Shown here piece after piece: positions 5,175-26,307 of a DNA stretch of 64,000 nucleotides (within the stretch, counting starts at the first letter, position 1; every line of letters starts with the position of its first letter). Below the pieces are notes generated by a model. That model saw only the letters and a list, made by a program, of their open reading frames with translations, was not told where the DNA came from and did not search any database. The DNA is from Acidobacteriota bacterium. GTDB taxonomy: Bacteria; Acidobacteriota; Terriglobia; Bryobacterales; Bryobacteraceae. A program made the position numbers and the translations under genes. The DNA lies in NCBI GenBank assembly GCA_017307505.1, contig JAFKEE010000020.1:248001-312000 (forward strand), given 5' to 3'.

Positions 5175-5181
5175 TGCCGCC

Positions 5182-8349: not shown

Positions 8350-8356
8350 GGTCGTC

Positions 8357-9493
8357 ATGTTTGTACGCGAATGTCGTATTCGCATGATGCTTGCCGCGCT
8401 GACGGGCGTTGTCGCCTGGTCCGGACTTGCCGCGTTCATCCCCCTGAGTCTGGCCTTGCCGATTCTGTGCGCGACCCTGCCGACCCGGCGGCATCGGGTA
8501 TCCGTTGCCCTCGCCTACTACGCAGCGGCCCTGTGGCCGGTGATTGCCGCAGGGATTCAACTCTATGGATTGCCTGCTGTCCCGTTTCTACTCGTGCTTG
8601 TCGGGGTTGCTGCTTCTATGCTTGCGGCCTGCTGGCTTCTGCCTGGAACAGTTGTGCCCATGGTCGCGGCAGCGGCTCCACCCATCGGCATTATCGGCGT
8701 AGCCAATCCCGTGACCTCGGCCGGCATTCTGTTTCCCGGCACCAGTTGGATCGGATTGATTGCGACCGCCCTCATTCCGTTCGGCGTGGCGCGATGTCCC
8801 GCTTGCACCGTGCCGACTGTTCTGGCCGTCGCGCTGACGCTGAACGGACTCGCTCGCACTCCGCAGCCGCCCGCCGGTTGGCGCGGCGTGGACACGCCCT
8901 TCGGCGACATCCGGAACAAGAAGGACCTAGCCGCGGAATTCCGTAGCGCCGATTGGATTCAGCAGGTGGCCCGTTCATCTGACGCGCAAGTCCTTGTCTT
9001 CCCGGAACTTTCCGTGACGCGTTGGACCCCAGCCACAGAAGCCTTTTGGCAACCCACCCTGGCGCGGCTTGGAGAAGACAACCGGACCCTCGTTCTCGGA
9101 GCCGGGTTGCCGATATCCGGTGGACAAGACTATAGGAATGTTCTGATCGCTGTGCCTTTTCGCCTTAGTACTGAAACGGCGTTCGTCGAGCAAAGCATCC
9201 CTCTACCGTGGGTCATGTGGAATCCCATCGCCGTCAAGGATCGGGTGCCGCTCAACCTCTGGGGCCGCCGGACAATCGAGGTTGCAGGCCAGCGCGCCGC
9301 CGCACTCATCTGCTACGAGCAACTAATACTGTGGCCAATTTTCACGGCTGTGTCAGAACGGCCAACGGTGCTCGTGGCCATCTCGAATGCGGTCTGGACG
9401 AAACGCACCCCGATTCCCACGGTGCAGAGATCGGCGGTTTGGGCCTGGAGCCGTCTCTTCGACATTCCGGCAGTCTCTGCCGTCAATCAATAG
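8357..9493 (+). CDS. traB: TraB-type conjugal transfer protein (nitrilase-fold, membrane)
   Basis: A 378-residue protein with about five or six hydrophobic segments in the first ~165 residues, followed by a carbon-nitrogen hydrolase domain. The Glu-Lys-Cys triad appears as E217 (VFPELS), K294 (AVKDRVP) and C319 (LICYEQL). This is the layout of Ti-plasmid/IncP-like TraB, a transfer-enhancing protein whose reaction is not settled. It also resembles apolipoprotein N-acyltransferase (Lnt). It directly follows traF, the usual TraF-TraB order in Agrobacterium-type transfer regions. Start ATG 8357 is 7 bases after the traF stop. Confidence 0.8.
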   Translation: MFVRECRIRMMLAALTGVVAWSGLAAFIPLSLALPILCATLPTRRHRVSVALAYYAAALWPVIAAGIQLYGLPAVPFLLVLVGVAASMLAACWLLPGTVVPMVAAAAPPIGIIGVANPVTSAGILFPGTSWIGLIATALIPFGVARCPACTVPTVLAVALTLNGLARTPQPPAGWRGVDTPFGDIRNKKDLAAEFRSADWIQQVARSSDAQVLVFPELSVTRWTPATEAFWQPTLARLGEDNRTLVLGAGLPISGGQDYRNVLIAVPFRLSTETAFVEQSIPLPWVMWNPIAVKDRVPLNLWGRRTIEVAGQRAAALICYEQLILWPIFTAVSERPTVLVAISNAVWTKRTPIPTVQRSAVWAWSRLFDIPAVSAVNQ

Positions 9494-9501
9494 GAGGGCT
9501 T

Positions 9502-10227
9502 ATGCGAGTGCTCGCGTCCCTGGCTCTATTCTTTCCCAATCTCGCGGCGCAGCCAGCTTCGCGCCCCCTGACTACAGCGGAGTTCGCGGCCGTTGCGAAG
9601 AGTTGTGCCCCCGATGCGCCAGTGTCGACCTTGCGCGCAATCGCTAAGGTGGAATCCGCGTTCAACCCGCTCGCGATCTCTATCAACTATCCAGACAAAG
9701 CCCCGGAACGGCTGGGTTTGAATGAAGGTACACTGGCGCTTTCGCGTCAGCCCACAACACTGAGCGAGGCGGTTCGTTGGACGAAATGGCTTTACAGCCG
9801 CGGACTCACGGTCAGCGTTGGCCTGATGCAAGTGAACGCCGAACATCTGGCAGGTCTCGGTCTTTCCCTCGAACAAGCTTTCGACCCATGCGCCAATCTG
9901 CGGGCAGGGTGGACGATTCTGAACACGAAGTATCGAACGGCGGCGGCGGTTCTCGGCCAAGGTCAACTCGCACTTCACGCCGCGATCTCTTCCTACAACA
10001 GTGGTTCGCTAATTGCAGGATTTAACAACGGATACGTAGATAAAGTGATCCAGAACAAGCCCGAGGTGTCATCAATACCCGCGTTGGCGGGTCAATTGAA
10101 TAGGCCGGAGGTGTCTTCAGTACCGCGTAGTGTGGACCCGCCAAGTGTGCCGCCGGTATCGGAGACGGAAGTTGAAGACCCGAACGCGGCAACAACCCGA
10201 GTGTCGTGGAAAAGAAACAAGAACTGA
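9502..10227 (+). CDS. VirB1-like lytic transglycosylase
   Basis: A 241-residue secreted muramidase that would open peptidoglycan for a transfer channel. A signal peptide covers about residues 1-16. The SLT-type domain has its catalytic glutamate at E51 (AIAKVESAFNP), followed by SVGLMQVNAEH and AAISSYNSG. The last ~60 residues are proline- and serine-rich with an imperfect PEVSSIP/PEVSSVP repeat. Start ATG 9502 follows TAGGAGGG, 8 bases after traB. In VirB operons this gene opens the pore cluster (virB2 on), but here no virB2-B11 gene follows. Confidence 0.85.
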   Translation: MRVLASLALFFPNLAAQPASRPLTTAEFAAVAKSCAPDAPVSTLRAIAKVESAFNPLAISINYPDKAPERLGLNEGTLALSRQPTTLSEAVRWTKWLYSRGLTVSVGLMQVNAEHLAGLGLSLEQAFDPCANLRAGWTILNTKYRTAAAVLGQGQLALHAAISSYNSGSLIAGFNNGYVDKVIQNKPEVSSIPALAGQLNRPEVSSVPRSVDPPSVPPVSETEVEDPNAATTRVSWKRNKN

Positions 10228-10911: not shown

Positions 10912-11050
10912 ACCTTCAGCAAAGTCAGTGATTGAAATGAGATCATGGCATCAAGCAGCGTCTGCCTTCGAACAGCGCTGCTCGCGGCGCCTTCGCAGTC
11001 CGCCGAGAAGCCTTTTTGCCCCATCTTAGGCATTGATCGTTGGAGGATGC

Positions 11051-14000
11051 GTGAACGTATTTGACCTGGACGAATCCCTGATCCGGGACTATGAACGGTT
11101 TGCCAGATCATTCACCCAGATTCGCGCAGACGACATTCGTCGCCAGGTCAATGCCATTTATGCGACAGGCCGGTTTTGGCCCGAGCCCCTGATTAGCATC
11201 AATCCACACTATGAACGCGATGCCGATGTGGATTCGCTTGTTAAGGAAGGCCTGCTTCACCCAAATACAGCTCGGATTTTTCGTGCAGGCGATTCGCCAA
11301 TCACCCTGTATCGGCACCAAGCGCAGGCTGTGGCAAAAGCATCTAAGGGAACTAGCTTCGTCGTGACCACAGGGACCGGATCGGGAAAGTCGCTGTGCTT
11401 CTTCATTCCGATCATTGACGCAGCCGTTCGAGCGCGAGCCGCGGGAAGCGCAGCCCGCACGCGAGCAATCATCGTCTACCCGATGAACGCACTAGCGAAT
11501 AGCCAGATGCAGGAACTGCGGAAATTCATCGACCAATCCGGACTTCCCGAAAACCTCAGGCCCACGTTCGCTCGCTACACCGGCCAGGAAGATAGCAACG
11601 AAAGAGAGCTCATCAAGAACGCAAAGCCGGACATTCTGCTCACGAACTTCATGATGCTCGAATTGCTCATGACCCGTCAGAGCGAACGGGACCAAACCGT
11701 GATCGGGAATGCTGAGGACCTGGATTTTCTAGTCCTAGACGAATTGCACACCTATCGTGGCCGGCAAGGAGCCGACGTTGCCATGCTCGTGCGGCGCGTG
11801 AAGGATCGCCTCTGCAAGCGCAAACCGCCGATCTGCATCGGCACGTCCGCCACCATGGCGAGCGAGGGTGAAGATCAGACGCGCGCGGCTGCCGTAGCCA
11901 GGGTGGCAACGCGGTTGTTCGGTACGCCCGTAACGCCAGACGCCGTGATCGATGAGAGCCTGGAGCGGGCGACCGACGCCGGAGTGGACAAAACTTCGAG
12001 TCTCGCCAAATTAATCGACGCCCCGGTTCCGGAGAGCATGACTGACGAAGATCTGCGGCGGCATCCGTTGGCCGCGTGGATTGAGATGGAGATCGGGCTT
12101 CTCGACGGCCAGCGGCTGAGTCGGCGCGAGCCCACTACCGTGGCAAGGGCGGCGGAACGGCTGGCCGAGGTTACGGGCCGCGACCAGATTCGATGTGCGC
12201 AGCACATTCAGGCAATGTTGACGCTGATGAGCCGTCCCGGCTCCGAACGGGGCGGAGGCGGGGATCGAGCATTTCTCGCCTTCAAGCTGCATCGCTTTAT
12301 CTCTGGTGCGGGGTTCGTCTACGCAACGTTAAGAGGGGGCAGCGACCGGCGCGTCACTTTGGAAGGTCAGCGATTTGATCCGGCCGACCCGGATTCAAGG
12401 CTCTATCCGACGTTCTTCTGCCGCACCTGCGGTCAGGAGTTTCATCCCGTCACGTTGGTCCAGAAAGAGAACGAGCGTCAGATCCTTCCGCGCCCAATTG
12501 ACGAGACGCCGATTGAGGATGACGGATCGGAGGATCAAGCCGGATATCTAATGCCGGAACCGGAGGCCGACCCGGACTACGGCTTCGCTGGCGAGGCGGA
12601 TGACTTCCCGGAGGAGTGGACTGAAGTGGGTCCGGGCGGAGTCAGACGCCTTCGGCCAGACAAGCGCCAACATGCGCCCCAAAGGATCTCCGTGACGTCG
12701 GCTGGGACGGTCGAAGATGGCGGGAAGCCGTCATTGTTCCTCCCCGGAAGATTTAAGTTTTGCCCTTACTGCAAGGACCAGCCGCCAGGCCAAGCGCGTG
12801 AGATCAATAAGTTGGCAGGACTCTCGGCTGAAGGCCGTAGTTCGGCCACAACACTACTCGTGTCGAGCGCGTTGCGTTGGATGAACCTGACAGACAGCCG
12901 CGTTCCAAAGGACAAGCGGAAGCTCTTAGGCTTCACAGACAATCGCCAAGACGCAGCGCTGCAAGCCGGGCACTTCAACGATTTCCTGTTCGTCTCCCTG
13001 TTTCGAGCAGCCACTTTGGCGGCAGTGCGTGCAGCAGGGACGGACGGGCTAGGTGACGACGAGTTCGGCCGGCGTGTCCAGTCGGCGCTGGGCTTCACTT
13101 CTGTCAACAAGTCAAGGCGCGCAGAGTGGCTGTCTCGACCAGACGCGGTTGGCGTGGGACTCATTGAAGCGGAGAGAGCATTGGCTCGTGTCCTGGCCCA
13201 TCGCGTATGGGCTGACCTCCGGCGTGGATGGCGTTTCACCAATCCGAACTTGGAGGAACTTGGTCTAGTTCGCGCCTCGTACGTCGGTATCGACGAACTT
13301 GCCGCCGATGTCGATGCGTTCTCTTCTGCCGCGCCCGAGATTCAAGCCCTCTCACCTGAGAAGCGCCAAGAAGCGCTCACAATTCTTTTGGACACCCTAA
13401 GGCATGGGCTTGCCGTCACGGCGGACGCCCTCGACCCGGCGATGGTAGACATTATCGCCACGGCGGCGAGGCAGTCCTTGCGCCATCCCTGGTCGATCGC
13501 CCAACAAGAAAATCTACGAATCGCGGCCGCACTGATGGTAGAAGCGCCACGACGTGAGGATGTCAGCTTGCGCGGCGAGCCGCTCATTGTTCGCGGAGGT
13601 CCTCGTAGCCGACTGGCCAAACAGCTCAATAGAAGTGAGATCTGGGGCCGCCGCCTTTCAGCCAAAGCGTATGTTGAGGTGGTCCAATCCCTTCTCGAGA
13701 TTGCTGAGCGGTACCAGTTGGTGCGGCGAGTGCCCACGACATTCGACGTTGAAGGGTGGAGGCTCGAAGCGAATGCCGTTCGCCTGACCCCAGGCATTGG
13801 CCGAACCGATGACAGGCCGGTGAACCAGTACTTCGTGAGCCTCTACCAAACCCTCGCGGACGCCCTAGCGAAGGGCGGCGATGGGCTTTTCGGGCTGGAG
13901 AGCCGCGAGCATACAGCGCAGGTTGAACAAGAGCGCCGCGAGTGGCGCGAATGGCGGTTCCGGTGGGAGCCGAAGGATCAGGAAAAGCTGGAGGGCCAAA

Positions 14001-16237
14001 AGGAGCGGCTTCGAGAAGAGGGTGAGCCCAATGTCTTCCTTCCCGCCCTGTTCTGCTCTCCAACTATGGAACTGGGTGTTGATATCTCAGCTTTGAACGC
14101 AGTCTACTTGCGCAACGTGCCTCCGACACCAGCTAACTATGCACAGCGTTCCGGACGCGCTGGCCGATCCGGTCAAGCTGCGCTTGTGGTCACCTATTGC
14201 GCAGCGCAAAGCCCCCACGACCAGCACTACTTTGCCGATCCGAAACAGATGGTCGCAGGCGTCGTGAGACCGCCCGCGTTGGAACTGGCGAACCGTGACC
14301 TGATCGAGTCCCACCTTCATGCTGTTTGGCTGGCTGAGTCTGGGCAGAACCTCCAGGAAGACATTCCGCACGTGCTCGACCTCAGTGTAGGCACCTTGCC
14401 GGTTCGCAAAGAGATCGAAAGCAATCTCAGCAAGCAGGAACTCGCCAAGCGTGCCCGCGTGTCGATGCTGCGCATTCTTCAGAGCGTCAGTTCCGAAGTC
14501 ACTCCGGAGAATGCCCCTTGGGCTGCGGACCGCGAAGCCTTCGTCGGCGTCGTTTCCGATGCTGCATTCAGTAGGTTTTCCGATGCGTTCAAGCGATGGA
14601 GGCAACTCTACCTCAGCGCTCACACACAGTTGACCGAGGCCAACCGAAAGTCCGAGATGCACGGGCTCAGCAGCAACGAACGTCGAGACGCGAAGCTGGC
14701 GCAGGCGCAGGCAAATGAGCAACTCGCGTTGTTAGAAAAAGGAAGGTCCACCGGCGGTTCGGATTTCTACACCTACCGATACCTCGCCACCGAAGGCTTT
14801 CTGCCAGGCTACAACTTCCCACGTTTGCCAATCTACGCTTACGTGCCCGCGTTGGGTGCTGGTGGTCCGAAGGCCGCGTATCTGCAACGGGCTCGATTCC
14901 TGGCCATTGCCGAATTTGGACCGCGCAGCCTCATCTACCATGAGGGCCGGGCGTTTCGCGTCAACAAAGCAAAGATTTCCCCGGAGCTTCGGGCTGCTGA
15001 GGGCGGAAGGCTGGCCACAAAGACGCTTTTTGTCTGCGAGCAATGCGGTGCTTCGCACGAAGCCGAGCCGGAACTGTGCCAAGTCTGTAGCGCCAGCATG
15101 GCTGGCGTTCATCCCATCCGGAACATCGTTCGGATCGACAATGTTGAAACTGCGGCAGCCGAGCGCATCACCGCGAATGATGAGGACCGCCAGCGCCAGG
15201 GCTTCGAGATCCAAACAGTCTTTGCTTGGCAGCAGCGTGATGGGCGGCCCGATGTCTCTTCCGCGATCGCCCAAGACAAGGAAGGTCCGATACTCCGGCT
15301 CGACTATGCGCCCGGCGCGAAGATCAGCCGAGTGAACAAAGGACTTCGCCGACGGAAAGAGAAAAGCCTTTTCGGATTCGGCATCGATCCGGCGTCGGGC
15401 CGTTGGGTTGCCACTCCGGGAGAAACGAACGAAGGAGACGCCGACCAAGCTCCACCTGAGAAAACGCCGCCGCAACTGATTGTTCCGATCGTCGAAGACA
15501 ACAAGAATGCCGCGCTCCTTCGACTCGCTGAGGAGCCTCAATCCATCGGGACGATCACGACCCTGCAACACGCATTCACGCGAGGCTTGGAGACAGTCTT
15601 CCAGTTGGAAGAAGGAGAGACTCTGACGGAACCCGTGCCCAACCGGGAAAGCCGCAAGGCGATCCTCGCATTCGAAGCGACGGAAGGCGGTGCCGGCGTT
15701 TTGACTCGGTTGGTGTCCGAGCAGAGCCGCCTCGCGGAGGTGGCGAAATCCGCGATGGAACTGATGCACTTCCAGAACGTGGAAGAGGCCGTCGCGACCG
15801 GCGATCCCGGAAAGCTGACAGATGACCCAAAAGCCAACTGCGTCAAAGGCTGCTACCGGTGCCTGTTGTCTTACTACAATCAGCCCGATCACGAGCTCAT
15901 AGACCGCACAGATCCAGAAGCTCTCGAAACTCTCTTGCGCCTCGCGCGCGCCGAAATCGTTCCGGTGGCAAGGAAACTTCCAGACGGCGCTCAACAGGCG
16001 TCCTTGCCGATCACGGACACTTGGCGCTTGCCCGACACCGACCCCAGTCCTCTGTCAGTCGGAGACGCCACGTATCCACTCGTCTGGCGTTCTCATCTGG
16101 TCGTCGCGACACCAGAAGCGCCAACCGCAGACCAGCGTTCCGCGCTCGAAGCACTCGGTTTTAGCGTGGTAGCTTTCGACCCCACGTCAGTTGAGCCGCC
16201 AGCCGAATTGCAGCAGCTACTCGGAGCCGCAAAATGA
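11051..16237 (+). CDS. Very large DUF1998 helicase (DrmA-DrmB fusion-like or DruE-like)
   Basis: A 1728-residue SF2 helicase. The Walker A motif TGTGSGKS is at ~107-114 and a DELH box (VLDELHTYRGRQGADVA) at ~230. Two zinc-type pairs follow (FCRTCGQEF at ~456, FCPYCKDQ at ~570). The C-terminal helicase part shows MELGVDISALN and QRSGRAGRSGQA at ~1000-1045, and another zinc ribbon CEQCGASHE lies at ~1330. The end is a DUF1998/MrfA-like region (FEATEGGAGVL; then NCVKGCYRCLLSYYNQ at ~1600). DISARM normally splits helicase DrmA and DUF1998 DrmB, whereas Druantia DruE has both in one long chain. The neighbours (SNF2 helicase, methylase) favour a DISARM-like role. GTG 11051 follows GGAGG. The stop overlaps the next start (ATGA). 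Confidence 0.8.
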   Translation: MNVFDLDESLIRDYERFARSFTQIRADDIRRQVNAIYATGRFWPEPLISINPHYERDADVDSLVKEGLLHPNTARIFRAGDSPITLYRHQAQAVAKASKGTSFVVTTGTGSGKSLCFFIPIIDAAVRARAAGSAARTRAIIVYPMNALANSQMQELRKFIDQSGLPENLRPTFARYTGQEDSNERELIKNAKPDILLTNFMMLELLMTRQSERDQTVIGNAEDLDFLVLDELHTYRGRQGADVAMLVRRVKDRLCKRKPPICIGTSATMASEGEDQTRAAAVARVATRLFGTPVTPDAVIDESLERATDAGVDKTSSLAKLIDAPVPESMTDEDLRRHPLAAWIEMEIGLLDGQRLSRREPTTVARAAERLAEVTGRDQIRCAQHIQAMLTLMSRPGSERGGGGDRAFLAFKLHRFISGAGFVYATLRGGSDRRVTLEGQRFDPADPDSRLYPTFFCRTCGQEFHPVTLVQKENERQILPRPIDETPIEDDGSEDQAGYLMPEPEADPDYGFAGEADDFPEEWTEVGPGGVRRLRPDKRQHAPQRISVTSAGTVEDGGKPSLFLPGRFKFCPYCKDQPPGQAREINKLAGLSAEGRSSATTLLVSSALRWMNLTDSRVPKDKRKLLGFTDNRQDAALQAGHFNDFLFVSLFRAATLAAVRAAGTDGLGDDEFGRRVQSALGFTSVNKSRRAEWLSRPDAVGVGLIEAERALARVLAHRVWADLRRGWRFTNPNLEELGLVRASYVGIDELAADVDAFSSAAPEIQALSPEKRQEALTILLDTLRHGLAVTADALDPAMVDIIATAARQSLRHPWSIAQQENLRIAAALMVEAPRREDVSLRGEPLIVRGGPRSRLAKQLNRSEIWGRRLSAKAYVEVVQSLLEIAERYQLVRRVPTTFDVEGWRLEANAVRLTPGIGRTDDRPVNQYFVSLYQTLADALAKGGDGLFGLESREHTAQVEQERREWREWRFRWEPKDQEKLEGQKERLREEGEPNVFLPALFCSPTMELGVDISALNAVYLRNVPPTPANYAQRSGRAGRSGQAALVVTYCAAQSPHDQHYFADPKQMVAGVVRPPALELANRDLIESHLHAVWLAESGQNLQEDIPHVLDLSVGTLPVRKEIESNLSKQELAKRARVSMLRILQSVSSEVTPENAPWAADREAFVGVVSDAAFSRFSDAFKRWRQLYLSAHTQLTEANRKSEMHGLSSNERRDAKLAQAQANEQLALLEKGRSTGGSDFYTYRYLATEGFLPGYNFPRLPIYAYVPALGAGGPKAAYLQRARFLAIAEFGPRSLIYHEGRAFRVNKAKISPELRAAEGGRLATKTLFVCEQCGASHEAEPELCQVCSASMAGVHPIRNIVRIDNVETAAAERITANDEDRQRQGFEIQTVFAWQQRDGRPDVSSAIAQDKEGPILRLDYAPGAKISRVNKGLRRRKEKSLFGFGIDPASGRWVATPGETNEGDADQAPPEKTPPQLIVPIVEDNKNAALLRLAEEPQSIGTITTLQHAFTRGLETVFQLEEGETLTEPVPNRESRKAILAFEATEGGAGVLTRLVSEQSRLAEVAKSAMELMHFQNVEEAVATGDPGKLTDDPKANCVKGCYRCLLSYYNQPDHELIDRTDPEALETLLRLARAEIVPVARKLPDGAQQASLPITDTWRLPDTDPSPLSVGDATYPLVWRSHLVVATPEAPTADQRSALEALGFSVVAFDPTSVEPPAELQQLLGAAK

Positions 16238-18981
16238 CGCAACAGTTCGCCCCTGGTGACCTTGTCTACGCTCGTGGCCGTGAATGGGTCACGATGCCAT
16301 CGCCCGAAGAAGACTGGCTTTGCCTGCGGCCATTGTCCGGCGCTGAGGCGGATATTCAGTACCTCCGTCCAGAGTTGGAACGTGATCCTGTGCGACCGGC
16401 GCGGTTCGAACTTCCGGACGGCAAAGTAACCGCTACACAAGATGCCGCGCGTATCCTCGCGGACGCCCTACGACTTTCCTTGCGACGGGGAGCGGGCCCG
16501 TTCCGGTCCGCCGCCAGGCTTGGCTTCGAACCGCGCGCCTACCAGTTGGTCCCTTTGCTGATGGCGCTTCGCCTTCCCACCGTGCGCCTGATGATCGCCG
16601 ACGATGTGGGTATCGGCAAGACCATCGAGGCTGGCCTGATCCTCCGTGAACTGATCGACCGCGGCGAGATTGATCGCATCGCAGTCCTATGCCCGCCGCA
16701 TCTTGTCGAGCAGTGGACATCCGAACTCAAACTGAAGTTCGATCTCGACGCCGTCGCGGTCACCGCCGCCACAGCCGCACGCCTGGAGCGCGGTCTTCCC
16801 GCCTCTCAGACCCTCTTTGACGCCCATCCTTTCACCGTCGTCAGTCTCGACTACATCAAGGCGGACAAGCGCCGCGACAGTTTCGCGCGATCGTGCCCCA
16901 AGACCATCGTGGTGGACGAAGCCCACGCATGTGTCGGCGCGCATCAGGGGCGTCAGCAGCGCTTCGAACTACTGAAGCGCCTCTCTGAAGACCCGGAACG
17001 CCACCTCATTTTGCTCACGGCCACTCCACACAGTGGCGACGAAGGCGCGTTCGACCGGCTGTTGAGCCTGCTCGACCCGAGTTTCACAACCAGTTCCATC
17101 GAGGATGCCGAAGATCGCATCCGCGTGGCGCGCCATCTCGTCCAACGCCGCCGCATCGACCTCATAGGCCACGACTGGGGAGAAGACCGCACTTTCCCCC
17201 GTCACGAAACAACAGAACAGCCGTACCCGCTGGAAAATCACCAGTCCTTTCACGAAGCCGTGCTCGACTATTGCCTTTCGGTGGTGACCACTTCCGGTGA
17301 AGACCAGAACAAGCGGCGTCTCGCTTTCTGGGGAACGCTTGCACTCATGCGCTGTGTCGGCTCATCGCCCGCCGCCGCGGCCAGCGCGCTGCGCAATCGC
17401 CTTTCCGGCGATCTCGACAAGCTCGGCGAACAGGTCTTCGACGATGACGAAGCCGAGTCCATCGACATCGAGCCCGCCTCCGGCATTCATACAGATGGTC
17501 CGCTCGAAAAGCTGATTGCCCAAGCCGACAAACTCGCCAAGAGTAAAGACCCGAAGTTGTCGGCGGTCATCGATCTCCTGAAGCCCCTCATCGCCCAAGG
17601 CGCGAACCCGGTCGTCTTCTGCCGATTCATCGCGACCGCCGAACACGTGGCCGAAGGACTCAGCAAGGCTTTCCCTGACCTTCGCGTCGAAGCTGTCACC
17701 GGCGCGCTGCCGTCCGACGAACGTCGCGCCCGCGTGGACGACATGGGCTCGGCGTCGCAGCGGCTACTGGTCGCCACGGACTGCCTATCGGAAGGTATCA
17801 ACCTACAAGCGCTCTTCGATTCGGTCGTCCACTATGACCTCTCCTGGAACCCAACCCGGCACCAGCAGCGCGAAGGCCGCGTAGATCGCTTCGGCCAATC
17901 GAAACCGCTCGTCCGTTCTGTGCTCCTCTACTCGCCGGACAGCGCGATCGACGGCGCAGTGCTCGACGTGATACTTCGAAAAGCCGCCGCTATCCGCAAA
18001 GCCACCGGCGTCACCGTTCCGCTGCCCGATGAGCGCGGCGCTGTCACAGGAGCGCTCATGAACGCCATGCTCCTGCGGAAAGGCAAAGCTCAACAGTTGA
18101 CCCTCGATTTCGGTTTTGCGAGCGACGCACACAATATGGAAATCCGCTGGCGTGACGCGCAGGAGGGAGAAAAGAAGTCCCGCGCCCGCTTCGCGCAGAA
18201 CGCTATCAAGCCGGAAGAAGTCGCCCCAGAATGGCGGCGCTGGCGCGAACTCCTCGGCGGACCCGCCGAAGTCCGGCGCTTCGTCGAGCGCGCACTCAGC
18301 CGTCTCGACGCCCCGCTCGACACGAGCCTCAGCGTGCCACAAGCGCACCTGCACGCACTCCCCGTCGGGCTCCGTGAGCGCCTCGCCGCCCGTGGACTTG
18401 AAGGCACCATCCGCCTGGCCTTTGAAGAGCCGCCGCCGCCGAACACAGAGGTCGTTGTCCGCAGCCACGCGCTGCCAGCCACGCTGGCGGAAGCGTTGCT
18501 CGAAGCGGCCCTCGATCCGACTTCAAGCCCCGTCCCGCCGGTCGGTCGCGCCGGAGCCTGGCTCACGCCCGCCGTCAAAGCAATCACTACCCTCGCGTTG
18601 CTCAGGCTACGTTTCAAACTCATCATCCGTGGGCGCAAGGAAAAGATGCTGCTCGTAGAAGAATCCGCCGCCATTGCCTTTGAAGGCACGTCCGAAACTC
18701 CCACCGCCACCGGCGCGGCAGTGTGGAGCCTGCTAGAAGTGAACGCAAGCGGCAACCTGGCCGACGTCGCCCGAGATCGCATGGTCGAACAAGCCCGCCA
18801 ACGAATTGCCGCCCTGCTCGACGGCTCTATCGCTACGTACGCGCAAGAGCGCGCCGCGTCGCTGGCCGAAGATCATGGGCGCGTCCGCGCCGCCGGCGTC
18901 AACGTGCCGCGTGTCACCGTCGAATCGGTCCTGCCCGCTGACATCATGGGCGTATTCGCATTGATCCCAGGGAGCCTCTAA
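16234..18981 (+). CDS. SNF2-family helicase, DrmD-like
   Basis: A 915-residue SF2/SNF2-type ATPase. The Walker A motif DDVGIGKT ends at residue 130 and the DEAH box is D228-H231. LLTATPHSG follows, and the C-terminal lobe carries QQREGRVDRFGQ. This matches DrmD, the translocase that marks class 1 DISARM. Start ATG 16234 overlaps the upstream helicase stop, and the methylase begins 2 bases downstream, so the three are one operon. RapA-like helicases are the alternative, but the methylase partner makes DrmD the better choice. Confidence 0.82.
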   Translation: MTQQFAPGDLVYARGREWVTMPSPEEDWLCLRPLSGAEADIQYLRPELERDPVRPARFELPDGKVTATQDAARILADALRLSLRRGAGPFRSAARLGFEPRAYQLVPLLMALRLPTVRLMIADDVGIGKTIEAGLILRELIDRGEIDRIAVLCPPHLVEQWTSELKLKFDLDAVAVTAATAARLERGLPASQTLFDAHPFTVVSLDYIKADKRRDSFARSCPKTIVVDEAHACVGAHQGRQQRFELLKRLSEDPERHLILLTATPHSGDEGAFDRLLSLLDPSFTTSSIEDAEDRIRVARHLVQRRRIDLIGHDWGEDRTFPRHETTEQPYPLENHQSFHEAVLDYCLSVVTTSGEDQNKRRLAFWGTLALMRCVGSSPAAAASALRNRLSGDLDKLGEQVFDDDEAESIDIEPASGIHTDGPLEKLIAQADKLAKSKDPKLSAVIDLLKPLIAQGANPVVFCRFIATAEHVAEGLSKAFPDLRVEAVTGALPSDERRARVDDMGSASQRLLVATDCLSEGINLQALFDSVVHYDLSWNPTRHQQREGRVDRFGQSKPLVRSVLLYSPDSAIDGAVLDVILRKAAAIRKATGVTVPLPDERGAVTGALMNAMLLRKGKAQQLTLDFGFASDAHNMEIRWRDAQEGEKKSRARFAQNAIKPEEVAPEWRRWRELLGGPAEVRRFVERALSRLDAPLDTSLSVPQAHLHALPVGLRERLAARGLEGTIRLAFEEPPPPNTEVVVRSHALPATLAEALLEAALDPTSSPVPPVGRAGAWLTPAVKAITTLALLRLRFKLIIRGRKEKMLLVEESAAIAFEGTSETPTATGAAVWSLLEVNASGNLADVARDRMVEQARQRIAALLDGSIATYAQERAASLAEDHGRVRAAGVNVPRVTVESVLPADIMGVFALIPGSL

Positions 18982-18983
18982 GC

Positions 18984-21900
18984 GTGGCCACCAGAAAGAA
19001 AGCCGCCAGCAGTAAGGCATCCACTTCAACAAGGACCGGCAAGTCGCGCCGACAGGCAGCTGTCGTCTTCGACACCATCACGCTCGAAGGCGGACTCCTC
19101 TCCTCCGCCATGCTCGCCCGCATCGCCGCGCGCGGAGCCGGTCACCAAACCGAGGCCGACTACGGTATCCCCAAAGGACTCACCCTCCGCGACGAGATCG
19201 CGCGCTACTTCCGCATCGGCGCGGCCCTCTTCCAGGACTTCGCCGCCAGCCCTACGCCGTCGCAACAGGCCACTGCGTCATTCATCAAAGACCTGTTCGC
19301 GCAGTCCCTCGGTTTCACCGACGCCTTGAAAGACCGCGTGCCGGTCGTGATCGTCCCGCCGGTCGATGAATTGGATAAACCCAGCCCATCCCTCAGCGGC
19401 GAAGGCCGCCGCCGCTCCGCCGCCTCCGCGCTCCAGGACTGGCTCAATCAGCGCGACGAAGCCCTCTGGGGCTTCTGCACCAACGGCGACCGCCTCCGCC
19501 TCATGCGCGACAACGCGAGCCTCACCCGGCCCGCCTTCGTCGAGGTCAACCTCCGACAAATCTTCGAATCCGAAAACTTCGCGGATTTCGCCGCCGCCTG
19601 GCAGATCTTCCACGCCTCCCGCTTCGGCACGCCGGGCACACCCGCCACCGAGTGCATCCTCGAACACTGGCGCTCGGACGGCGCAAAAGAAGGCGTCACG
19701 GCCCGCGACCGCCTGCGCGACGGCGTCGAAACTGCGCTCCTCGCCTTGGGCAATGGCTTCCTCGCGCATCCCGAAAACGCGCCGCTCCGCAATCGCGTCA
19801 CCTCCGGGGAACTCGCCCTGCCGGACTTCTTCGGACAACTCCTGCGGCTCGTCTATCGCCTCATCTTTCTTCTGGTCGCCGAAGACCGCGGACTTCTCCA
19901 TCCGCCCGATAGCTCTCCCACCGCGGCCAAGCTCTACGCTGAAGGCTACAGCGTCAGCGCCCTCCGCGAGCGCGCCATCCGCCGCACCGCGTGGGACCAG
20001 CACTTCGACCGTTGGGAAGGCCTGCTCATCACCTTCGCCGGACTCGCCTACGGTCAACCCAAGCTCGCGCTCCCCGCGCTCGGCGGCCTGTTCGACGACA
20101 CCGTCATTCCCGACCTCGAACGCGCGCGCCTTGGCAATCGCGCCCTCATGGAAGCCGTCTACCGGTTGGCCTGGCTGAAGGACGACGCCAGCCTCGTCCC
20201 CGTCAACTGGCGCGACATGGAGACCGAAGAACTCGGCTCCGTCTACGAAAGCCTGCTCGAACTCACGCCCATCCTCACCAGCGAAGGCCGCGGCATCAGC
20301 TTCGCCCAAGGCGACGAGACCAAGGGCAATCAACGCAAGACCACTGGCAGCTACTACACGCCCGACAGTCTCGTGCAGACCCTGCTCGACAGCGCCCTCG
20401 ACCCTGTACTCGATCGAGTCGAGTCGGAGTCGAGCGACAAGGTCCAGGGACTCCTCGGTGTCACCGTCATCGATCCCGCCTGCGGCTCCGGCCACTTCCT
20501 GCTCGCCGCTTCGCGCCGCATCGCCGTCCGTGTCGCCCGCGCCCGCACCGGCGGTGTCGCCTCGCCACAGGACTACCGCCACGCCCTGCGCGATGTCGTG
20601 CGCTCTTGTATTCATGGAGTGGACCGCAACCCCATGGCCGTCGAACTCACCAAGGTGGCGCTATGGATCGAGACCGTCGAACCCGGTAAACCGCTCGGCT
20701 TCCTCGACGCCAGCATTCTCTGCGGTGACTCGCTCCTGGGAATCTTCGATCTGAAGGTTTTGGTCGAAGGTATCCCGGACGCTGCGTACCGGCAGCTTTC
20801 GGGCGATAGCAGAGAGGCCGCTAAATACTTTGAGAAGCGCAATCAAAAGGAGCGCGATGGCCAGGGAACGTTCGACTTCAGCGGAAATCGGCAGCAGTTG
20901 GTCGCCGCACCGCCAATCGCGGCGGAGATGAAGATTGTACGAGCGTTGCCCGAAGATAGCCCCGCTGACGTCTTGGAAAAGCGCCGCCGCTATCGGACCG
21001 TGAACAAGAACTCCGACCTAATACATTGGCAAGACGCCGCTGATCTTTACGTCGCTGCGTTCTTACTGCCCAAAACGGACTCGCGCCGCGTTCCCGGTAC
21101 AGAACTGGTCCCGACCAGCGAAACGATTTGGCAGAAACTGCGCGGCGGTCAAGTCTTTGGCCCAATGTTAGGAGAGGCCGTGGAGTTGGCTGACAAGGCA
21201 CGAGCTTTTCATTGGCCGCTGAGATTTCCGGACGTGCTGGCGAGCGGCGGTTTCGACGCGGTGATCGGCAATCCACCTTGGGAGCGCCTCAAGATTCAAG
21301 AGCAGGAATTCTTCGCTTCTCGCGAGCCTGAGGTTGCTCTGGCACCAAACGCAGACGCACGCGGCAAGTTGATCGCGGAGTTGAGCCGCGCGGCCGCAGG
21401 AAGTCGAGAGCACCGACTTTTTCTTGAGTTCGAGCAGGCAAAGCGAACAGCCGAAGCTTCCTCGGTATACGCCAGGGAAAGCGGACGTTTCCCACTCACA
21501 GGACGCGGCGACGTCAATACATTCGCGCTCTTCAGTGAACTCTTCGTCAAGTTGGTTAGCAGCACTGGGCGAACCGGAATCATTGTGCCGACACAGATTG
21601 TTACAGCTGACACTACAAAGGCTTTCTTTGACGACCTGATGAACAAGGAGCGACTGATTTCGTTCGTCGGTTTCTCAGAGATTCGACAGTGGTTCCCCGC
21701 CACCGATGATCGAAGTTCGTTCGGGCTATTGACCTCTGGTTCGCACGCGGAGGCGGCCAAGTTTGCGTTTTCTCTAGCTTCGATGGAAGAGTTCAAGCAG
21801 GCGGAAAGACATTTCACTCTTACCGCTGGTCAGATTGCCCGTATCAATCCCAATACGAGAACCGCGCCGATGTTTCGTACCAAATACGACACTGCGCTCG

Positions 21901-22832
21901 TCACCAAGATTCACAAGCGCATCCCGGCACTCATCGACGAGAACAAGGAGGGCGGCAACACTTGGGGAATCTCGTTCATGCGAATGTTCGACATGGCGAC
22001 CGACAGCGGGTTATTTCTCAGGGAGCCCGGCCCTGCCCGTGTGCCGCTGCTGGAAGCCAAGATGATTCATCAGTTCGATCACCGCTGGTGTAGCTATGAA
22101 GGGGATGACACTCGTGATCTTACTTCGCAGGAGATAGCTGACCCTTCATTCGAGACCACTCCCCACTACTGGGTGGAGGAATTCAACGTCCGCGAACGCC
22201 TTGCTGAGAAGAAGTGGTCGCGCGATTGGCTTATGGGTTGGCGCAGAAATGCAAGGACTACGGACGAGAGAACGCTGATTGCCAATGTTATCCCTTGGTC
22301 TGGAGTTGGTGACAGCATGTTCTTGCTCATGCCTTCCACCGATGCAATCCAGTGTGGGGCCCTCATTGCATGCCTAAACTCTCTAGCTCTCGATTTTGTC
22401 GTTCGCCAAAAGGTAGGCGGAGCCAATCTGAGCTACCACTTTGTTAGCCAGTTTCCTGTACCATCAGCAGACTCTTTCGCATCAAGCGACCTCGGATTCA
22501 TTTGTTCCCGCGTCCTTGAGTTGGTATACACAAGCCATGCTATGGTCCCTTTTGCCCGCGATCTCGGCCATCAGGGTCCCCCTTTCCCGTGGAACGAAGA
22601 CCGCCGCGCGCAACTTCGCGCCGAGCTCGACGCTTTTTATGCCCGCGCCTACGGCCTCGACCGCGACGAACTCCGCTACATTCTCGACCCCGCCGACGTG
22701 ATGGGCGAGGACTACCCGTCCGAAACCTTCCGCGTGCTGAAGAACAACGAGATGAAGAAATTCGGCGAGTACCGCACCCGCCGCCTCGTGCTCGCAGCCT
22801 GGGACCGCCTGGAGGCCGGTGATCTGAAATGA
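18984..22832 (+). CDS. Eco57I/DrmMI-like N6-adenine methyltransferase
   Basis: A 1282-residue DNA adenine methylase. Motif I VIDPACGSGHF starts near residue 495 and the catalytic NPPW is at ~763-766. The long spacer between them and the long C-terminal recognition region are usual in Eco57I/PglX/DrmMI enzymes. In DISARM the methylase marks self DNA. The start is GTG 18984, and a lysine-rich tail precedes the conserved DTITLEGGLLSSAML region. Base use changes inside the gene: 18984 to about 20740 and after about 22550 are very GC-rich, while the stretch holding NPPW and the recognition region is clearly less so. Its stop overlaps the HNH start (ATGA). Confidence 0.82.
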   Translation: MATRKKAASSKASTSTRTGKSRRQAAVVFDTITLEGGLLSSAMLARIAARGAGHQTEADYGIPKGLTLRDEIARYFRIGAALFQDFAASPTPSQQATASFIKDLFAQSLGFTDALKDRVPVVIVPPVDELDKPSPSLSGEGRRRSAASALQDWLNQRDEALWGFCTNGDRLRLMRDNASLTRPAFVEVNLRQIFESENFADFAAAWQIFHASRFGTPGTPATECILEHWRSDGAKEGVTARDRLRDGVETALLALGNGFLAHPENAPLRNRVTSGELALPDFFGQLLRLVYRLIFLLVAEDRGLLHPPDSSPTAAKLYAEGYSVSALRERAIRRTAWDQHFDRWEGLLITFAGLAYGQPKLALPALGGLFDDTVIPDLERARLGNRALMEAVYRLAWLKDDASLVPVNWRDMETEELGSVYESLLELTPILTSEGRGISFAQGDETKGNQRKTTGSYYTPDSLVQTLLDSALDPVLDRVESESSDKVQGLLGVTVIDPACGSGHFLLAASRRIAVRVARARTGGVASPQDYRHALRDVVRSCIHGVDRNPMAVELTKVALWIETVEPGKPLGFLDASILCGDSLLGIFDLKVLVEGIPDAAYRQLSGDSREAAKYFEKRNQKERDGQGTFDFSGNRQQLVAAPPIAAEMKIVRALPEDSPADVLEKRRRYRTVNKNSDLIHWQDAADLYVAAFLLPKTDSRRVPGTELVPTSETIWQKLRGGQVFGPMLGEAVELADKARAFHWPLRFPDVLASGGFDAVIGNPPWERLKIQEQEFFASREPEVALAPNADARGKLIAELSRAAAGSREHRLFLEFEQAKRTAEASSVYARESGRFPLTGRGDVNTFALFSELFVKLVSSTGRTGIIVPTQIVTADTTKAFFDDLMNKERLISFVGFSEIRQWFPATDDRSSFGLLTSGSHAEAAKFAFSLASMEEFKQAERHFTLTAGQIARINPNTRTAPMFRTKYDTALVTKIHKRIPALIDENKEGGNTWGISFMRMFDMATDSGLFLREPGPARVPLLEAKMIHQFDHRWCSYEGDDTRDLTSQEIADPSFETTPHYWVEEFNVRERLAEKKWSRDWLMGWRRNARTTDERTLIANVIPWSGVGDSMFLLMPSTDAIQCGALIACLNSLALDFVVRQKVGGANLSYHFVSQFPVPSADSFASSDLGFICSRVLELVYTSHAMVPFARDLGHQGPPFPWNEDRRAQLRAELDAFYARAYGLDRDELRYILDPADVMGEDYPSETFRVLKNNEMKKFGEYRTRRLVLAAWDRLEAGDLK

Positions 22833-23614
22833 TCGAGAACCCGCCGTCCTTCGTCGTCCGCACCGAACTCCACAAGGCCGCCTTCGACAACGGCTTTCGC
22901 ATCGATGCGGGAACGGACTCCGGTTGGCTCCACTACCGCTCGACCACCGCGCCGGGCGACATCTGGATGGCTGCAACGTCAAAGGACGGCCCCTGGTTCC
23001 TCGCCGTCGGCCTATCCGCCATTGCAGCCGAACTCGGCACTCCGCCGGTTACGATGCCAGCGCCCGCCACCACCTTCGCCTTCCCCACGCTGAACGAACT
23101 CCACGACGCGCTCGACCGCACCTACCGTCTCGCGGTCAGCCTGCCGGACGCCCCGCTCCAGGAGTTCCTCGAAAAGACGAAGTCCGTCCCGCGCACCACC
23201 GAAGCCGAACGCCTGGTGATCCAGCGCGTGGGCCAGGACATCTTCCGTCAAGCGCTAATGAAGTATTGGAACAGCCGCTGCCCACTGACCGGCATCACCG
23301 ACCCGGCCCTCCTCCGCGCCTCCCACATCGTGCCGTGGTCCGAATGCGAATCCGACGCCCAGCGCCTCGACGTCCACAACGGCCTCCTACTCTCCGCCCT
23401 CTGGGACGCCGCCTTCGACGCCGGCCTAGTCAGCTTCGACGACGAAGGCCGAGTCCTGCGCTCGCCCCACCTTTCCCCGGCCGCCGCGATTCTGCTCGCG
23501 CCAAAGCCGATGCAAGTGCTGGCGCTGACGCCAGCCCATTACAGAAACCTTGCCCATCACCGCTCCAGATTCCGGTTCAGCGACGGAGGTCGTCCTTACG
23601 AGAGTACAGCGTGA
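22829..23614 (+). CDS. HNH endonuclease (HNH_2 type), fourth gene of the DISARM-like operon
   Basis: A 261-residue protein with a C-terminal HNH nuclease: CPLTG at 151-155, the catalytic histidine H166 in ASHIVPW and N184 in DVHNGLLLSALWDAAFD. The N-terminal ~110 residues are a small domain of unknown role (GWLHYRSTT, then IWMAATS). ATGA coupling to the methylase shows it belongs to the operon. It takes the position where class 1 DISARM has the phospholipase-D-type nuclease DrmC, which is absent here, so I infer it is the cutting subunit. Confidence 0.8.
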   Translation: MIENPPSFVVRTELHKAAFDNGFRIDAGTDSGWLHYRSTTAPGDIWMAATSKDGPWFLAVGLSAIAAELGTPPVTMPAPATTFAFPTLNELHDALDRTYRLAVSLPDAPLQEFLEKTKSVPRTTEAERLVIQRVGQDIFRQALMKYWNSRCPLTGITDPALLRASHIVPWSECESDAQRLDVHNGLLLSALWDAAFDAGLVSFDDEGRVLRSPHLSPAAAILLAPKPMQVLALTPAHYRNLAHHRSRFRFSDGGRPYESTA

Positions 23615-24589: not shown

Positions 24590-25176
24590 TGACCGGACTT
24601 CTTCGCACCGGAATTATCCGCGCGCTGGCTGGTTACGCCAAGCGCGAAGTCGTTCCTCGCCTAGGTGAGCTGGTCTGGTCCCAACACACCGTTATCGCAC
24701 TCGCGGTGGGCGTTGCGCTGGCCTGGTATGCTCCGTCCATCACGGGTGCACCAAAGGTATCGGAAATTGCGGTAGGCTTCCTCGGATACGCCGCGATCGC
24801 GTTAGGTTTCTGTGTCGCTGGCATCACTATTTCGCTCACTCTTCCGGATCGAGATTTCCTGCAGAGGCTTTCGCAGCACTCCGTACGGGGGAGAGAGGGT
24901 GATGCTCTGTCCTCGCTTCTGTTTGTCTTTACATGGACTGGAGTGGTTCACTGGGCTTGCGTTGTCAACCTAATTGTGGTGCTTCTGTTGGACGGCGGAA
25001 ACCAGCGGCCATTTACGCAAGGAGCCACGCATTGGCGACTGCTCGGGATTGCAGCGACGACCAGCCTGTGCACCTACGCCCTAGAGACGTTCTTGGTTAC
25101 GGTGTTGACTCTTGGGCATGTCGGGCGCACCTTTATCGACGAGCTTCGGAGAAACGGTTCCGGAAGGGCGCAATGA
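24589..25176 (+). CDS. Four-helix membrane protein, partner of the preceding gene
   Basis: A 195-residue protein from ATG 24589 with about four hydrophobic segments: HTVIALAVGVALAWYA, then FLGYAAIALGFCVAGI, then WACVVNLIVVLLL, then SLCTYALETFLVTVL. A charged stretch (LPDRDFLQRLSQHS) lies between segments two and three. No enzyme motif is visible. The pairing with the soluble upstream protein resembles sensor plus membrane-effector defence modules in which the membrane partner causes membrane damage; that is inference. The Cap5 gene starts 2 bases after its stop, so all may share a transcript. Confidence 0.7.
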   Translation: MTGLLRTGIIRALAGYAKREVVPRLGELVWSQHTVIALAVGVALAWYAPSITGAPKVSEIAVGFLGYAAIALGFCVAGITISLTLPDRDFLQRLSQHSVRGREGDALSSLLFVFTWTGVVHWACVVNLIVVLLLDGGNQRPFTQGATHWRLLGIAATTSLCTYALETFLVTVLTLGHVGRTFIDELRRNGSGRAQ

Positions 25177-25177
25177 G

Positions 25178-26299
25178 GTGTCGGTAAGCTATATACCGGA
25201 GAGCGTCAAGATTCGCCTGTGGGGCAAGGCGGGCGGCCGTTGCCAATACGAAGGCTGCAACACGCCGCTATGGATCGACGCGCTTACCCAGAGTGAGTTC
25301 AATTCCGCCTATATCGCCCACATCGTGGCCGACAAAGCGACCGGGCCCCGTGGTGATCCGGTGCTTTCCGAGCAACTCAAGGCCGACATTGGCAATCTGA
25401 TGCTTCTTTGTGACAAGCACCATCGGCTGGTAGACATCGCCGATGTGGCCGGGCATCCCGTTGTTCGGCTCAACGGAATGAAGCAACGCCACGAACACCG
25501 GATCGAGCTTTTGGGCTCGCTTGGGCCTGAGAAGCGGAGCCATGTTGTGCTTTACGGAGCCAACATAGGCTCCCACAATGCCCCGCTTTCAATCAACAAG
25601 GCAGCTCAAGCGATGCTTCCAGATTGGTATCCCGCCGAAGCGAGACCAATAGAGTTCGGTTGGACCAATAGCATTCTCGAAGACCGCAATGAGGCGTATT
25701 GGCAGGGCCAGAAACTGCAACTGTGCGGCATCTTCGAACAGAGCCTAAAGCCGCGCCTCAGGTCAGGCGAGATTCAGCATCTCTCCGTATTCGGCCTCGC
25801 ACCCCAGCCGCTGTTAATGCTACTGGGCCACTTGATGTACGACATCACCGCCGCCGAGGTTTACCAACTGCACCGGGAACCACCGGACTGGCGATGGCAG
25901 GCAGATCCTCACGGCTTCGACTTCTTCGTTTCGGAGCCCACCTCGACTACCGGTCCGCCTGCACTGGTGTTTTCTTTGAGCGCGACCGTCGTAGATGACA
26001 GAATCCACGGCGTGCTGCCCGGTGCGAGCATTTGGAAGCTGTCATGTCCTCAGCCTCACAATGACTTCTTGGCCGGACGGGGGCAATCGAGGCTATTTCG
26101 CCAACAGGTGCGCAGTCTTCTTGACCGCATCAAAGCCGCCCATGGTGAATCTGCCACCTTGCACGTTTTTCCGGCCATGCCCGTGGCGCTCGCTATCGAG
26201 TTCGGCCGGGTGATCATGCCGAAGGCCGATCTGAAAATGCAAATCTACGATCAGAATCAAGCCCTTGGCGGCTTCGTGCCAACATTGACTCTTCCGTAG
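25178..26299 (+). CDS. cap5: CBASS effector Cap5 (HNH nuclease with SAVED domain)
   Basis: A 373-residue protein. The N-terminal HNH domain has zinc-type residues C22, C27 and C78, a core histidine H48 (AHIVADK), N73 and H81/H82 (LLCDKHHRLVD). The C-terminal ~200 residues form a SAVED domain (LVFSLSATVVDDRI; ESATLHVFPAMPVALAIEFG; LKMQIYDQN), which binds cyclic oligonucleotides. In CBASS, the nucleotide signal drives Cap5 to degrade DNA and kill the infected cell. GTG 25178 gives the usual Cap5 length; a longer in-frame start would lie inside the membrane gene. It runs towards the CD-NTase/E2 genes, ending 8 bases from the E2 stop. Confidence 0.9.
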   Translation: MSVSYIPESVKIRLWGKAGGRCQYEGCNTPLWIDALTQSEFNSAYIAHIVADKATGPRGDPVLSEQLKADIGNLMLLCDKHHRLVDIADVAGHPVVRLNGMKQRHEHRIELLGSLGPEKRSHVVLYGANIGSHNAPLSINKAAQAMLPDWYPAEARPIEFGWTNSILEDRNEAYWQGQKLQLCGIFEQSLKPRLRSGEIQHLSVFGLAPQPLLMLLGHLMYDITAAEVYQLHREPPDWRWQADPHGFDFFVSEPTSTTGPPALVFSLSATVVDDRIHGVLPGASIWKLSCPQPHNDFLAGRGQSRLFRQQVRSLLDRIKAAHGESATLHVFPAMPVALAIEFGRVIMPKADLKMQIYDQNQALGGFVPTLTLP

Positions 26300-26307
26300 T
26301 CAGGCAA

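What the first reader, a model, noticed from the sequence alone, without database searches (positions are those of the whole stretch)
11051..23614. Four-gene DISARM/Druantia hybrid: fused DUF1998 helicase + SNF2 helicase + adenine methylase + HNH nuclease
Classical class 1 DISARM is DrmD, DrmMI, DrmA, DrmB and DrmC. Here DrmA- and DrmB-like functions appear joined in one 1728-residue protein, which also resembles DruE of Druantia. DrmC is missing and an HNH nuclease is coupled to the methylase instead. All four genes overlap or nearly touch. This is the best candidate in the window for an undescribed restriction-like defence system.
Basis: partly seen in the sequence, partly recalled or inferred. 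Interest (0 to 1): 0.88.

Follow-up and report, generated by a model that had tools for sequence, protein, structure and literature searches.

The report
ARMADA-like defence operon with HNH nuclease
These four bacterial genes look like a version of a recently described anti-virus system (ARMADA) in which the DNA-cutting part of the big helicase has lost its active site and a separate cutting enzyme has been added to the operon.

Summary
The four genes are real, on one strand and tightly packed (11051-23614). Genes 1-3 (YprA/DUF1998 helicase, RapA/BrxHII-like helicase, PglX-like adenine methylase) have the content and order of ARMADA type I, a DISARM-related system in a 2025 preprint. So the core is not an undescribed DISARM/Druantia hybrid; the one-piece helicase is the usual YprA architecture.

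The departure is the nuclease. The preprint gives ARMADA helicases a predicted active C-terminal Vsr nuclease. Here that domain is recognisable but its catalytic motif is gone, and a separate intact HNH nuclease ends the operon. Among 97 relatives (sampled near the window), 61 of 64 resolved inactive-Vsr loci carry this HNH; active-Vsr loci carry it in 8 of 20. HNH seems to have been gained about once and Vsr lost perhaps three times afterwards: too few events for statistical proof. HNH follows the helicase in descent, and its full-length family lay at ARMADA loci or a remnant wherever this could be checked.

In 47 of 70 relatives with HNH, genes sit on the same strand between methylase and HNH, sometimes parts or all of other defence systems (Mokosh, DRT1). 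In the window this slot is empty. Most likely: methylase marks self, helicases engage foreign DNA, HNH cuts.

The parts
11042..11046 (+). GGAGG ribosome-binding site of gene A
   Evidence: read directly
11051..16237 (+). Gene A: YprA-family (DruE/ArmC-like) DEAD-box helicase with DUF1998/MZB region, 1728 aa
   Evidence: alignment A1
11312..11866 (+). RecA1 (DEAD) domain of A, residues 88-272; Walker A at 107-114, DELH at 230
15563..15865 (+). MZB (MrfA Zn-binding, DUF1998) region of A, residues 1505-1605
   Evidence: model matches DrmB 7s9v_B Z 7.6 and MrfA 6znq_B Z 6.3
15989..16234 (+). Pseudo-Vsr: C-terminal nuclease-fold domain of A (residues 1647-1728) without the PDF...FIDGPHH-type motif
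   Evidence: alignments; no Pfam nuclease hit whereas four active tails hit DUF559; hhalign to active tails 97.3%; VIA rows 3hrl and 3r3p
16234..18981 (+). Gene B: RapA/BrxHII-like SNF2 helicase, 915 aa
18984..22832 (+). Gene C: PglX/Eco57I-type N6-adenine methyltransferase, 1282 aa (DPACGSG 497, NPPW 763)
22829..23614 (+). Gene D: HNH endonuclease, 261 aa, catalytic-site residues H166, N184, D193, D197
22829..23143 (+). N-terminal domain of D (about residues 1-105), no significant PDB match listed; shared by the ARMADA-linked HNH family
23195..23593 (+). Linker helix and HNH domain of D (residues 123-255), related to VcaM4I

Best explanation
A variant of ARMADA type I. Shown by sequence: the operon order YprA helicase, RapA/BrxHII-like helicase, PglX-like adenine methylase, HNH nuclease; the helicase's C-terminal Vsr-type domain lacks its catalytic motif; the HNH active-site residues are present; the full-length HNH family goes with ARMADA loci and follows the helicase in descent. 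Inferred: C methylates host DNA as a self mark; A and B recognise and move along unmarked or replicating phage DNA; D, held by its N-terminal domain and kept inactive by its linker helix, is recruited or released to cut it. HNH was probably added to an ancestor with an active Vsr, after which the fused Vsr decayed (three times if it was never regained), leaving HNH as the main cutter in the window's lineage.
For: Gene content and order fit ARMADA I as written in PMC12458937. A is nearest DruE models, far above DrmA (298.6 vs 47.8 bits), and groups with ARMADA-I-like loci apart from an E. coli ARMADA II locus, a Druantia-like protein and a DrmA. Vsr: (97.3%, E 1.8e-11; best of 30 column shuffles 0.64%). 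HNH: VcaM4I relative, E 4.5e-39; residues matching VcaM4I H224, N241, D250, D254 are invariant in 21 of 21. Association: inactive Vsr 61 with HNH, 3 without, 5 unresolved; active Vsr 8 with, 12 without, 8 unresolved. Distance correlations: A-B 0.90, A-D 0.76, A-C 0.55, A-cargo SMC 0.41. In draws not chosen for gene A (299, 385 and 369 genomes), leaving out the three centre genomes, 4 full-length D genes appeared: 3 downstream of A-B-C and 1 beside a remnant of B.
Against: The Vsr/HNH link rests on 4 changes of Vsr state; the independent-pairs test has no power (3 pairs: 1 in the expected direction, 2 without difference), and the Fisher p of 3.7e-7 ignores shared descent. 8 loci have both an active-looking Vsr and HNH, so HNH is not simply a replacement. 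Three inactive-Vsr loci lack HNH: L166 (IS21 genes right after the methylase), L076 (methylase in pieces), L160 (Chloroflexota, EVE-domain and DUF2357 genes downstream instead). L081 has only an HNH remnant. The cargo SMC gene also follows A better than chance (permutation p 0.002, the floor, as for every pair tested). Two full-length HNH genes (G317, G323) lie on other contigs and could not be assigned. No activity was measured; 'inactive' and 'active' are motif calls. The preprint's supplements may list HNH.
Confidence: 0.7

Rival explanations
1. ARMADA core plus an independent modification-dependent (type IV-like) HNH restriction enzyme that merely sits in the operon and catches phages with modified DNA, as VcaM4I does.
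For: The HNH domain is closest to VcaM4I and, weakly, TagI, both modification-dependent. PMC12839542 (abstract and passages seen) reports auxiliary HNH nucleases beside BREX and BREX-related systems as backup effectors.
Against: No EVE or SRA reader found (Pfam finds only HNH_2; the PDB sequence match starts at residue 123). The full-length family is tied to ARMADA loci and follows the helicase in descent.
Confidence: 0.16
2. HNH is an extra nuclease on top of a helicase tail that still cuts with a rearranged active site; nothing was handed over.
For: 8 loci keep an active-looking Vsr beside HNH, and the degenerate tail keeps a predicted fold and a recurrent W-R/P patch.
Against: The motif is absent in all 66 rows of the clade that holds the window, as scored by pattern, and no Pfam nuclease model matches the 6 degenerate tails tested.
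Confidence: 0.09
3. A new DISARM/Druantia hybrid, as first read.
For: DruE, DrmD and DrmMI models all hit.
Against: Scores are far under NCBIfam cut-offs, DrmB is not a separate gene, no DrmC or Druantia partner among the four genes, and the gene order is that of ARMADA I.
Confidence: 0.05

Closest known systems
ARMADA type I (Bell et al. 2025 preprint, PMC12458937)
   Same: YprA-like helicase first, then BrxHII/RapA-like helicase, then PglX-like methylase; helicase nearest Druantia's DruE
   Different: C-terminal Vsr has no catalytic motif; a fourth gene, an HNH nuclease, ends the operon and is not mentioned in the preprint's main text
ARMADA type II (tested in E. coli in the same preprint; L172 here)
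   Same: same three enzyme classes; four genes
   Different: order helicase-methylase-YprA-ArmD; the fourth gene is a GajB-like helicase fused to a RelE-like domain, not HNH
DISARM class 1
   Same: DrmD-like and DrmMI-like enzymes and a YprA-type helicase with a DUF1998 module
   Different: DISARM splits DrmA/DrmB and usually has the PLD nuclease DrmC
Druantia
   Same: DruE is the nearest modelled relative of A
   Different: no DruH or other Druantia gene among the four; a methylase partner of this kind is not part of Druantia as I recall it
VcaM4I (EVE-HNH, PDB 6yex)
   Same: linker helix, HNH domain and all four active-site residues named in PMC7897488 section 21
   Different: D has another N-terminal domain instead of EVE
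Type-1 BREX-related systems (PMC12839542, passages seen)
   Same: helicase-PD-(D/E)XK fusion in 79% of taxa, other nucleases including HNH nearby in the rest: a parallel for nuclease turnover
   Different: DUF499-centred; the paper's main text does not mention YprA

Membership tests
ARMADA type I | YprA-like helicase with DUF1998 module in one chain, nearer DruE than DrmA | tested here: met
ARMADA type I | order YprA, BrxHII/RapA-like helicase, PglX-like methylase | tested here: met
   against the text
ARMADA type I | separate from ARMADA II, no ArmD-like helicase | tested here: met
   32-row tree with one E. coli type II locus (very long branch, quick search); no UvrD/GajB domain in the four proteins
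ARMADA type I | predicted active C-terminal Vsr nuclease (stated for types I and II; typical rather than the clade definition) | tested here: not met
ARMADA type I | lies in the published clade with representative WP_108720193.1 | not testable with these tools
   that record was not found in the collections used
ARMADA type I | BrxA-like insert after RecA1 and zinc-binding beta-barrel in RecA2 | not tested
   CxxC pairs at 457 and 571 seen; fold not predicted
ARMADA type I | anti-phage activity | not testable with these tools
   bench work
DISARM class 1 | DrmA and DrmB as two genes, DrmC present | tested here: not met
DISARM class 1 | DrmD by NCBIfam cut-off | tested here: not met
   284 of 610 bits
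Druantia | DruE with Druantia partner genes | tested here: not met
   none among the four genes; flanking genes scanned by Pfam are conjugation and CBASS genes, 3 of 10 without a match
EVE-HNH restriction enzymes | HNH active-site residues | tested here: met
EVE-HNH restriction enzymes | N-terminal EVE domain | tested here: not met
   no Pfam match; PDB sequence match only from residue 123
BREX-related (BR) type 1 | DUF499 ATPase | tested here: not met
   no such domain in the four proteins

The most novel reading that the evidence does not exclude
A nuclease hand-over inside a helicase defence system: an HNH enzyme with its own ARMADA-specific docking domain joined the operon once, the fused Vsr then died repeatedly and became a structural platform, and the gap between methylase and HNH became a slot into which other defence genes, even whole systems, are inserted and co-expressed.
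Probability: 0.48. Interest if true: 0.65.

Novelty: new variant of a known kind. Interest (0 to 1): 0.5.

Why it matters
Which enzyme cuts DNA in ARMADA is open in the text I read. A lineage in which the fused nuclease looks dead and a separate, easily mutated nuclease is kept makes that step directly testable: one catalytic mutation in D should abolish defence. It would also show effector turnover in the YprA family as a natural experiment, and an internal slot that collects other defence genes between two genes of one operon, useful for detection tools and for the study of synergy.

Tried and rejected
Rejected: 'dead Vsr has HNH, active Vsr has none'. The first count within 10-kb flanks suggested it. 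Whole-genome searches and longer stretches showed 8 active-Vsr loci with HNH 2.1-10.6 kb beyond the methylase, and I replaced the claim by the weaker one.

Rejected: HNH plus SMC ATPase as a Septu-like pair. The SMC gene is present in 24 of 70 HNH loci (L022 repeats L007), matches only LmuB and PDC-M68B weakly and follows A less closely than D does.

Led nowhere: HNH relatives in viral contigs (none); Foldseek of A's tail (nothing at E 0.001 or better). In one search the Z values are middling and unrelated LuxS chains score as high (7.8) over the DUF1998 part; two mitoribosomal chains also match the tail (Z 5.7 and 4.3). The N-terminal domain of D has no listed fold match, which does not show that its fold is new. 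FastTree leaves the HNH-bearing rows unresolved (open fork; HNH state needs 4 changes, two of them the absences in L166 and L076), whereas the 32-row mixture tree puts its 14 HNH rows in one clade.

Sample and rows: one search kept the best 80 of 530 encoded relatives (itself a capped list), so the sample leans to near relatives of the window. Rows dropped before the count: 7 of 104 (L022 duplicate of L007; L029, L043, L062, L077, L090, L167 truncated or broken gene A). 90 of the 97 kept rows have both B and C in the stretch; on those alone the counts are 60/3/4 (inactive: HNH/none/unresolved) and 8/11/4 (active). L163 has no B in its stretch and L089 has B on the other strand and no C. L161 and L162 were set to active by eye because the pattern missed their motif; L157 was set to HNH-present after reading the rest of its circular plasmid. 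For L087, L091 and L092 the contig ends near the methylase and 'no HNH' rests on no match in the assembly. Found later and not counted: L169, L176, L177 (inactive Vsr, HNH; found through HNH, so biased) and L170 (active-looking Vsr, no HNH annotated before a transposition gene). Searches scored at most 6-7 candidates per genome at E 1e-40, so full-length D may be undercounted; of 8 partial HNH matches there, 7 were fetched (G327 was not): no A in about 19-20 kb for 5 of them, in about 5 kb upstream for one, and one lies at a contig end and says nothing.

Full report
Observation. The four genes exist as stated and are packed with 4-nt overlaps or a 2-nt gap. A (1728 aa) is a DEAD-box helicase with the MrfA/DUF1998 zinc domain; B (915 aa) a SNF2-type helicase; C (1282 aa) an Eco57I/N6 adenine methylase; D (261 aa) an HNH_2 nuclease. 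The motifs searched for in the motors of A and B and in C and D are all present.

What the core is. PADLOC gives A as DruE (298.6 bits; DrmA 47.8), B as DpdE (633 bits, full length) then DrmD (254), C as DrmMI (241) or type IIG (144). NCBIfam shows no match above a curated cut-off. A literature search led to PMC12458937 (abstract, results and figure legends read), which describes ARMADA type I by this order: YprA homolog, BrxHII-like helicase, PglX-like methylase. In a 32-row tree the window groups with ARMADA-I-like loci and apart from an E. coli ARMADA II locus, a Druantia-like protein and a DrmA, though these references have very long branches. The core is therefore a member of a known kind, as far as content, order and this tree can tell.

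What differs. The preprint says that ARMADA I and II helicases end in a predicted active Vsr nuclease, and its main text mentions HNH only in a reference title (supplements not readable). In the window's A the tail aligns with active tails such as L013 (PDF...FVDGPHHH) but lacks the motif. Ten tails were scanned with Pfam: the four with the motif all hit DUF559 (three above its cut-off of 20.6 bits, one at 19.5), and the six without it hit no nuclease model. A profile of 56 degenerate tails aligns with a profile of 28 active ones at 97.3% (E 1.8e-11); 30 column-shuffled controls reached at most 0.64%. The AlphaFold model of A 1479-1728 (pLDDT 90) matches, over its last 80 residues, 3hrl (titled a putative endonuclease-like protein; Z 7.2, 79 aligned, rmsd 3.3) and 3r3p (homing endonuclease I-Bth0305I catalytic domain; Z 5.8, 76 aligned, rmsd 3.7), and DrmB and MrfA over the rest. 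These Z values are middling and some unrelated chains score alike. That 3hrl and 3r3p are Vsr-like is recalled, not from a call. The tail is thus most likely a dead Vsr.

The HNH gene. D models with pLDDT 94.5. Its linker helix and HNH domain match VcaM4I by sequence (E 4.5e-39); VcaM4I is also the best structure match. The residues matching VcaM4I H224, N241, D250 and D254 (section 21 of PMC7897488) are H166, N184, D193 and D197, invariant in 21 of 21 homologs. No EVE reader was found; D has another N-terminal domain. [quoted passage not shown]

Is D part of the system? (1) Pairwise distances: A-B 0.90 (69 loci), A-D 0.76 (65), A-C 0.55 (68), A versus the commonest cargo gene 0.41 (21); within 20 loci holding all five, 0.93, 0.73, 0.68, 0.38; every pair beats all 499 permutations, the cargo too. 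(2) Genomes not picked for having A: besides the window's own genome, one full-length D among 299 genomes drawn from its class (a same-family genome with the whole operon); three among 385 of another class besides its centre genome, of which two follow A-B-C and one follows a remnant of B; none among 369 of a third class besides its centre genome. Proteins sharing only the HNH part showed no A nearby in the 5 cases with 19-20 kb to look at. (3) In 34 assemblies that hold A, 22 of 24 full-length D genes (240 bits or more) lie downstream of an A on the same contig; the other two are in assemblies whose A contig ends within or 2.4 kb after the methylase.

Vsr and HNH. Of 97 A genes kept, 69 have a degenerate tail: 61 with HNH, 3 without, 5 unresolved. 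Of 28 with the motif, 8 have HNH, 12 do not, 8 are unresolved. Fisher p is 3.7e-7, but related loci are not independent: the tree needs 4 changes of Vsr state (3 forced by well-supported branches) and the independent-pairs test cannot decide (3 pairs). HNH-less active-Vsr loci are basal. In the 32-row tree the 14 HNH rows are one clade, which suggests one gain; FastTree leaves this open. Inside the HNH-bearing part, degenerate Vsr appears in the L157 lineage, the L065 lineage and a 66-row clade that holds the window, i.e. three losses unless Vsr was once regained; one more case, L160, lies outside. My first count, limited to 10-kb flanks, had overstated this as mutual exclusion; one search corrected it.

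A cargo slot. Of 70 HNH loci (one a duplicate record), 17 (the window among them) have no ORF of 90 aa or more between methylase and HNH, 47 have at least one on the same strand, and 6 have only opposite-strand ORFs that may not be genes. The commonest is an SMC-like ATPase of mostly 644-685 aa (24 loci). Ten representatives scanned include Mokosh MkoA/MkoB, a DRT1a reverse transcriptase, a GmrSD/HEC-05 protein, PDC-S39, HEC-03B, a second DrmD-like helicase, an HD-domain protein and a UvrD-like helicase.

Mechanism. In E. coli ARMADA II all four genes are needed, Walker mutants of ArmA and ArmC and the methylase NPPW mutant lose defence, and defence is non-abortive (PMC12458937). By analogy C marks self, A and B act on foreign DNA, and D cuts. 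In a Druantia III preprint (PMC13192584; abstract and outline seen) DruE is a helicase-nuclease engaging ssDNA-containing intermediates. Recruitment of D by A and its release from autoinhibition are inference.

Context. Upstream are conjugation genes (VirD4/TraG coupling protein, SSB, signal peptidase, transglycosylase) and downstream CBASS genes, so the operon sits in a defence island, perhaps on a conjugative element. The same genome holds a second ARMADA-I-like locus with an active-looking Vsr and no HNH within 6.7 kb of the methylase; the whole-genome search gave one D match, the window's (8 of 15 candidates scored).

Literature searches for prior description. By titles, abstract starts and the passages opened, none describes an ARMADA operon with HNH; only the open-access library was searched.

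Noticed in passing
L140, L143, L126, L124, L011 (methylase-HNH interval): Other defence genes, among them Mokosh A/B, DRT1a, GmrSD-like and HEC-03B genes, lie between the methylase and HNH genes of ARMADA-I-like operons.
   Followed up: partly
L158, L159, L160 downstream of methylase: ARMADA-I-like loci without HNH in Actinomycetota, Deinococcota and Chloroflexota have McrBC-like or DUF2357 genes within about 4 kb of the methylase; L160, with a degenerate Vsr, has EVE-domain and DUF2357 genes directly after it.
   Followed up: no
L155 (G000:C67:76600-96500): A second ARMADA-I-like operon in the window's own genome, with active-looking Vsr and no HNH within 6.7 kb.
   Followed up: partly
window 25112-27911: CBASS genes: a SAVED-domain protein (25112-26299) and a SMODS cyclic-nucleotide synthase on the other strand (26742-27911).
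   Followed up: no
window 5137-10227: Conjugation genes (T4SS coupling protein, SSB, S26 peptidase, transglycosylase) upstream.
   Followed up: no
L165, L170: Two ARMADA-I-like loci have Mu-type transposase and TniB genes shortly downstream, suggesting carriage by transposons of that kind.
   Followed up: no
PADLOC model PDLC02853: Labelled DpdE, but it matches ARMADA gene B over its full length at 1.7e-190, so the label may cover ARMADA helicases.
   Followed up: no
L175: A full-length ARMADA-type HNH directly after a 63-aa stretch of gene B, with no A or C match in the stretch: probably a decayed locus.
   Followed up: no
L169: A same-family genome carries the same four genes at 75/79/62/70% identity, the methylase diverging most.
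   Followed up: yes
L062: A short MAG contig whose gene A reads straight into an HNH-like sequence; an assembly chimera or a deletion.
   Followed up: no
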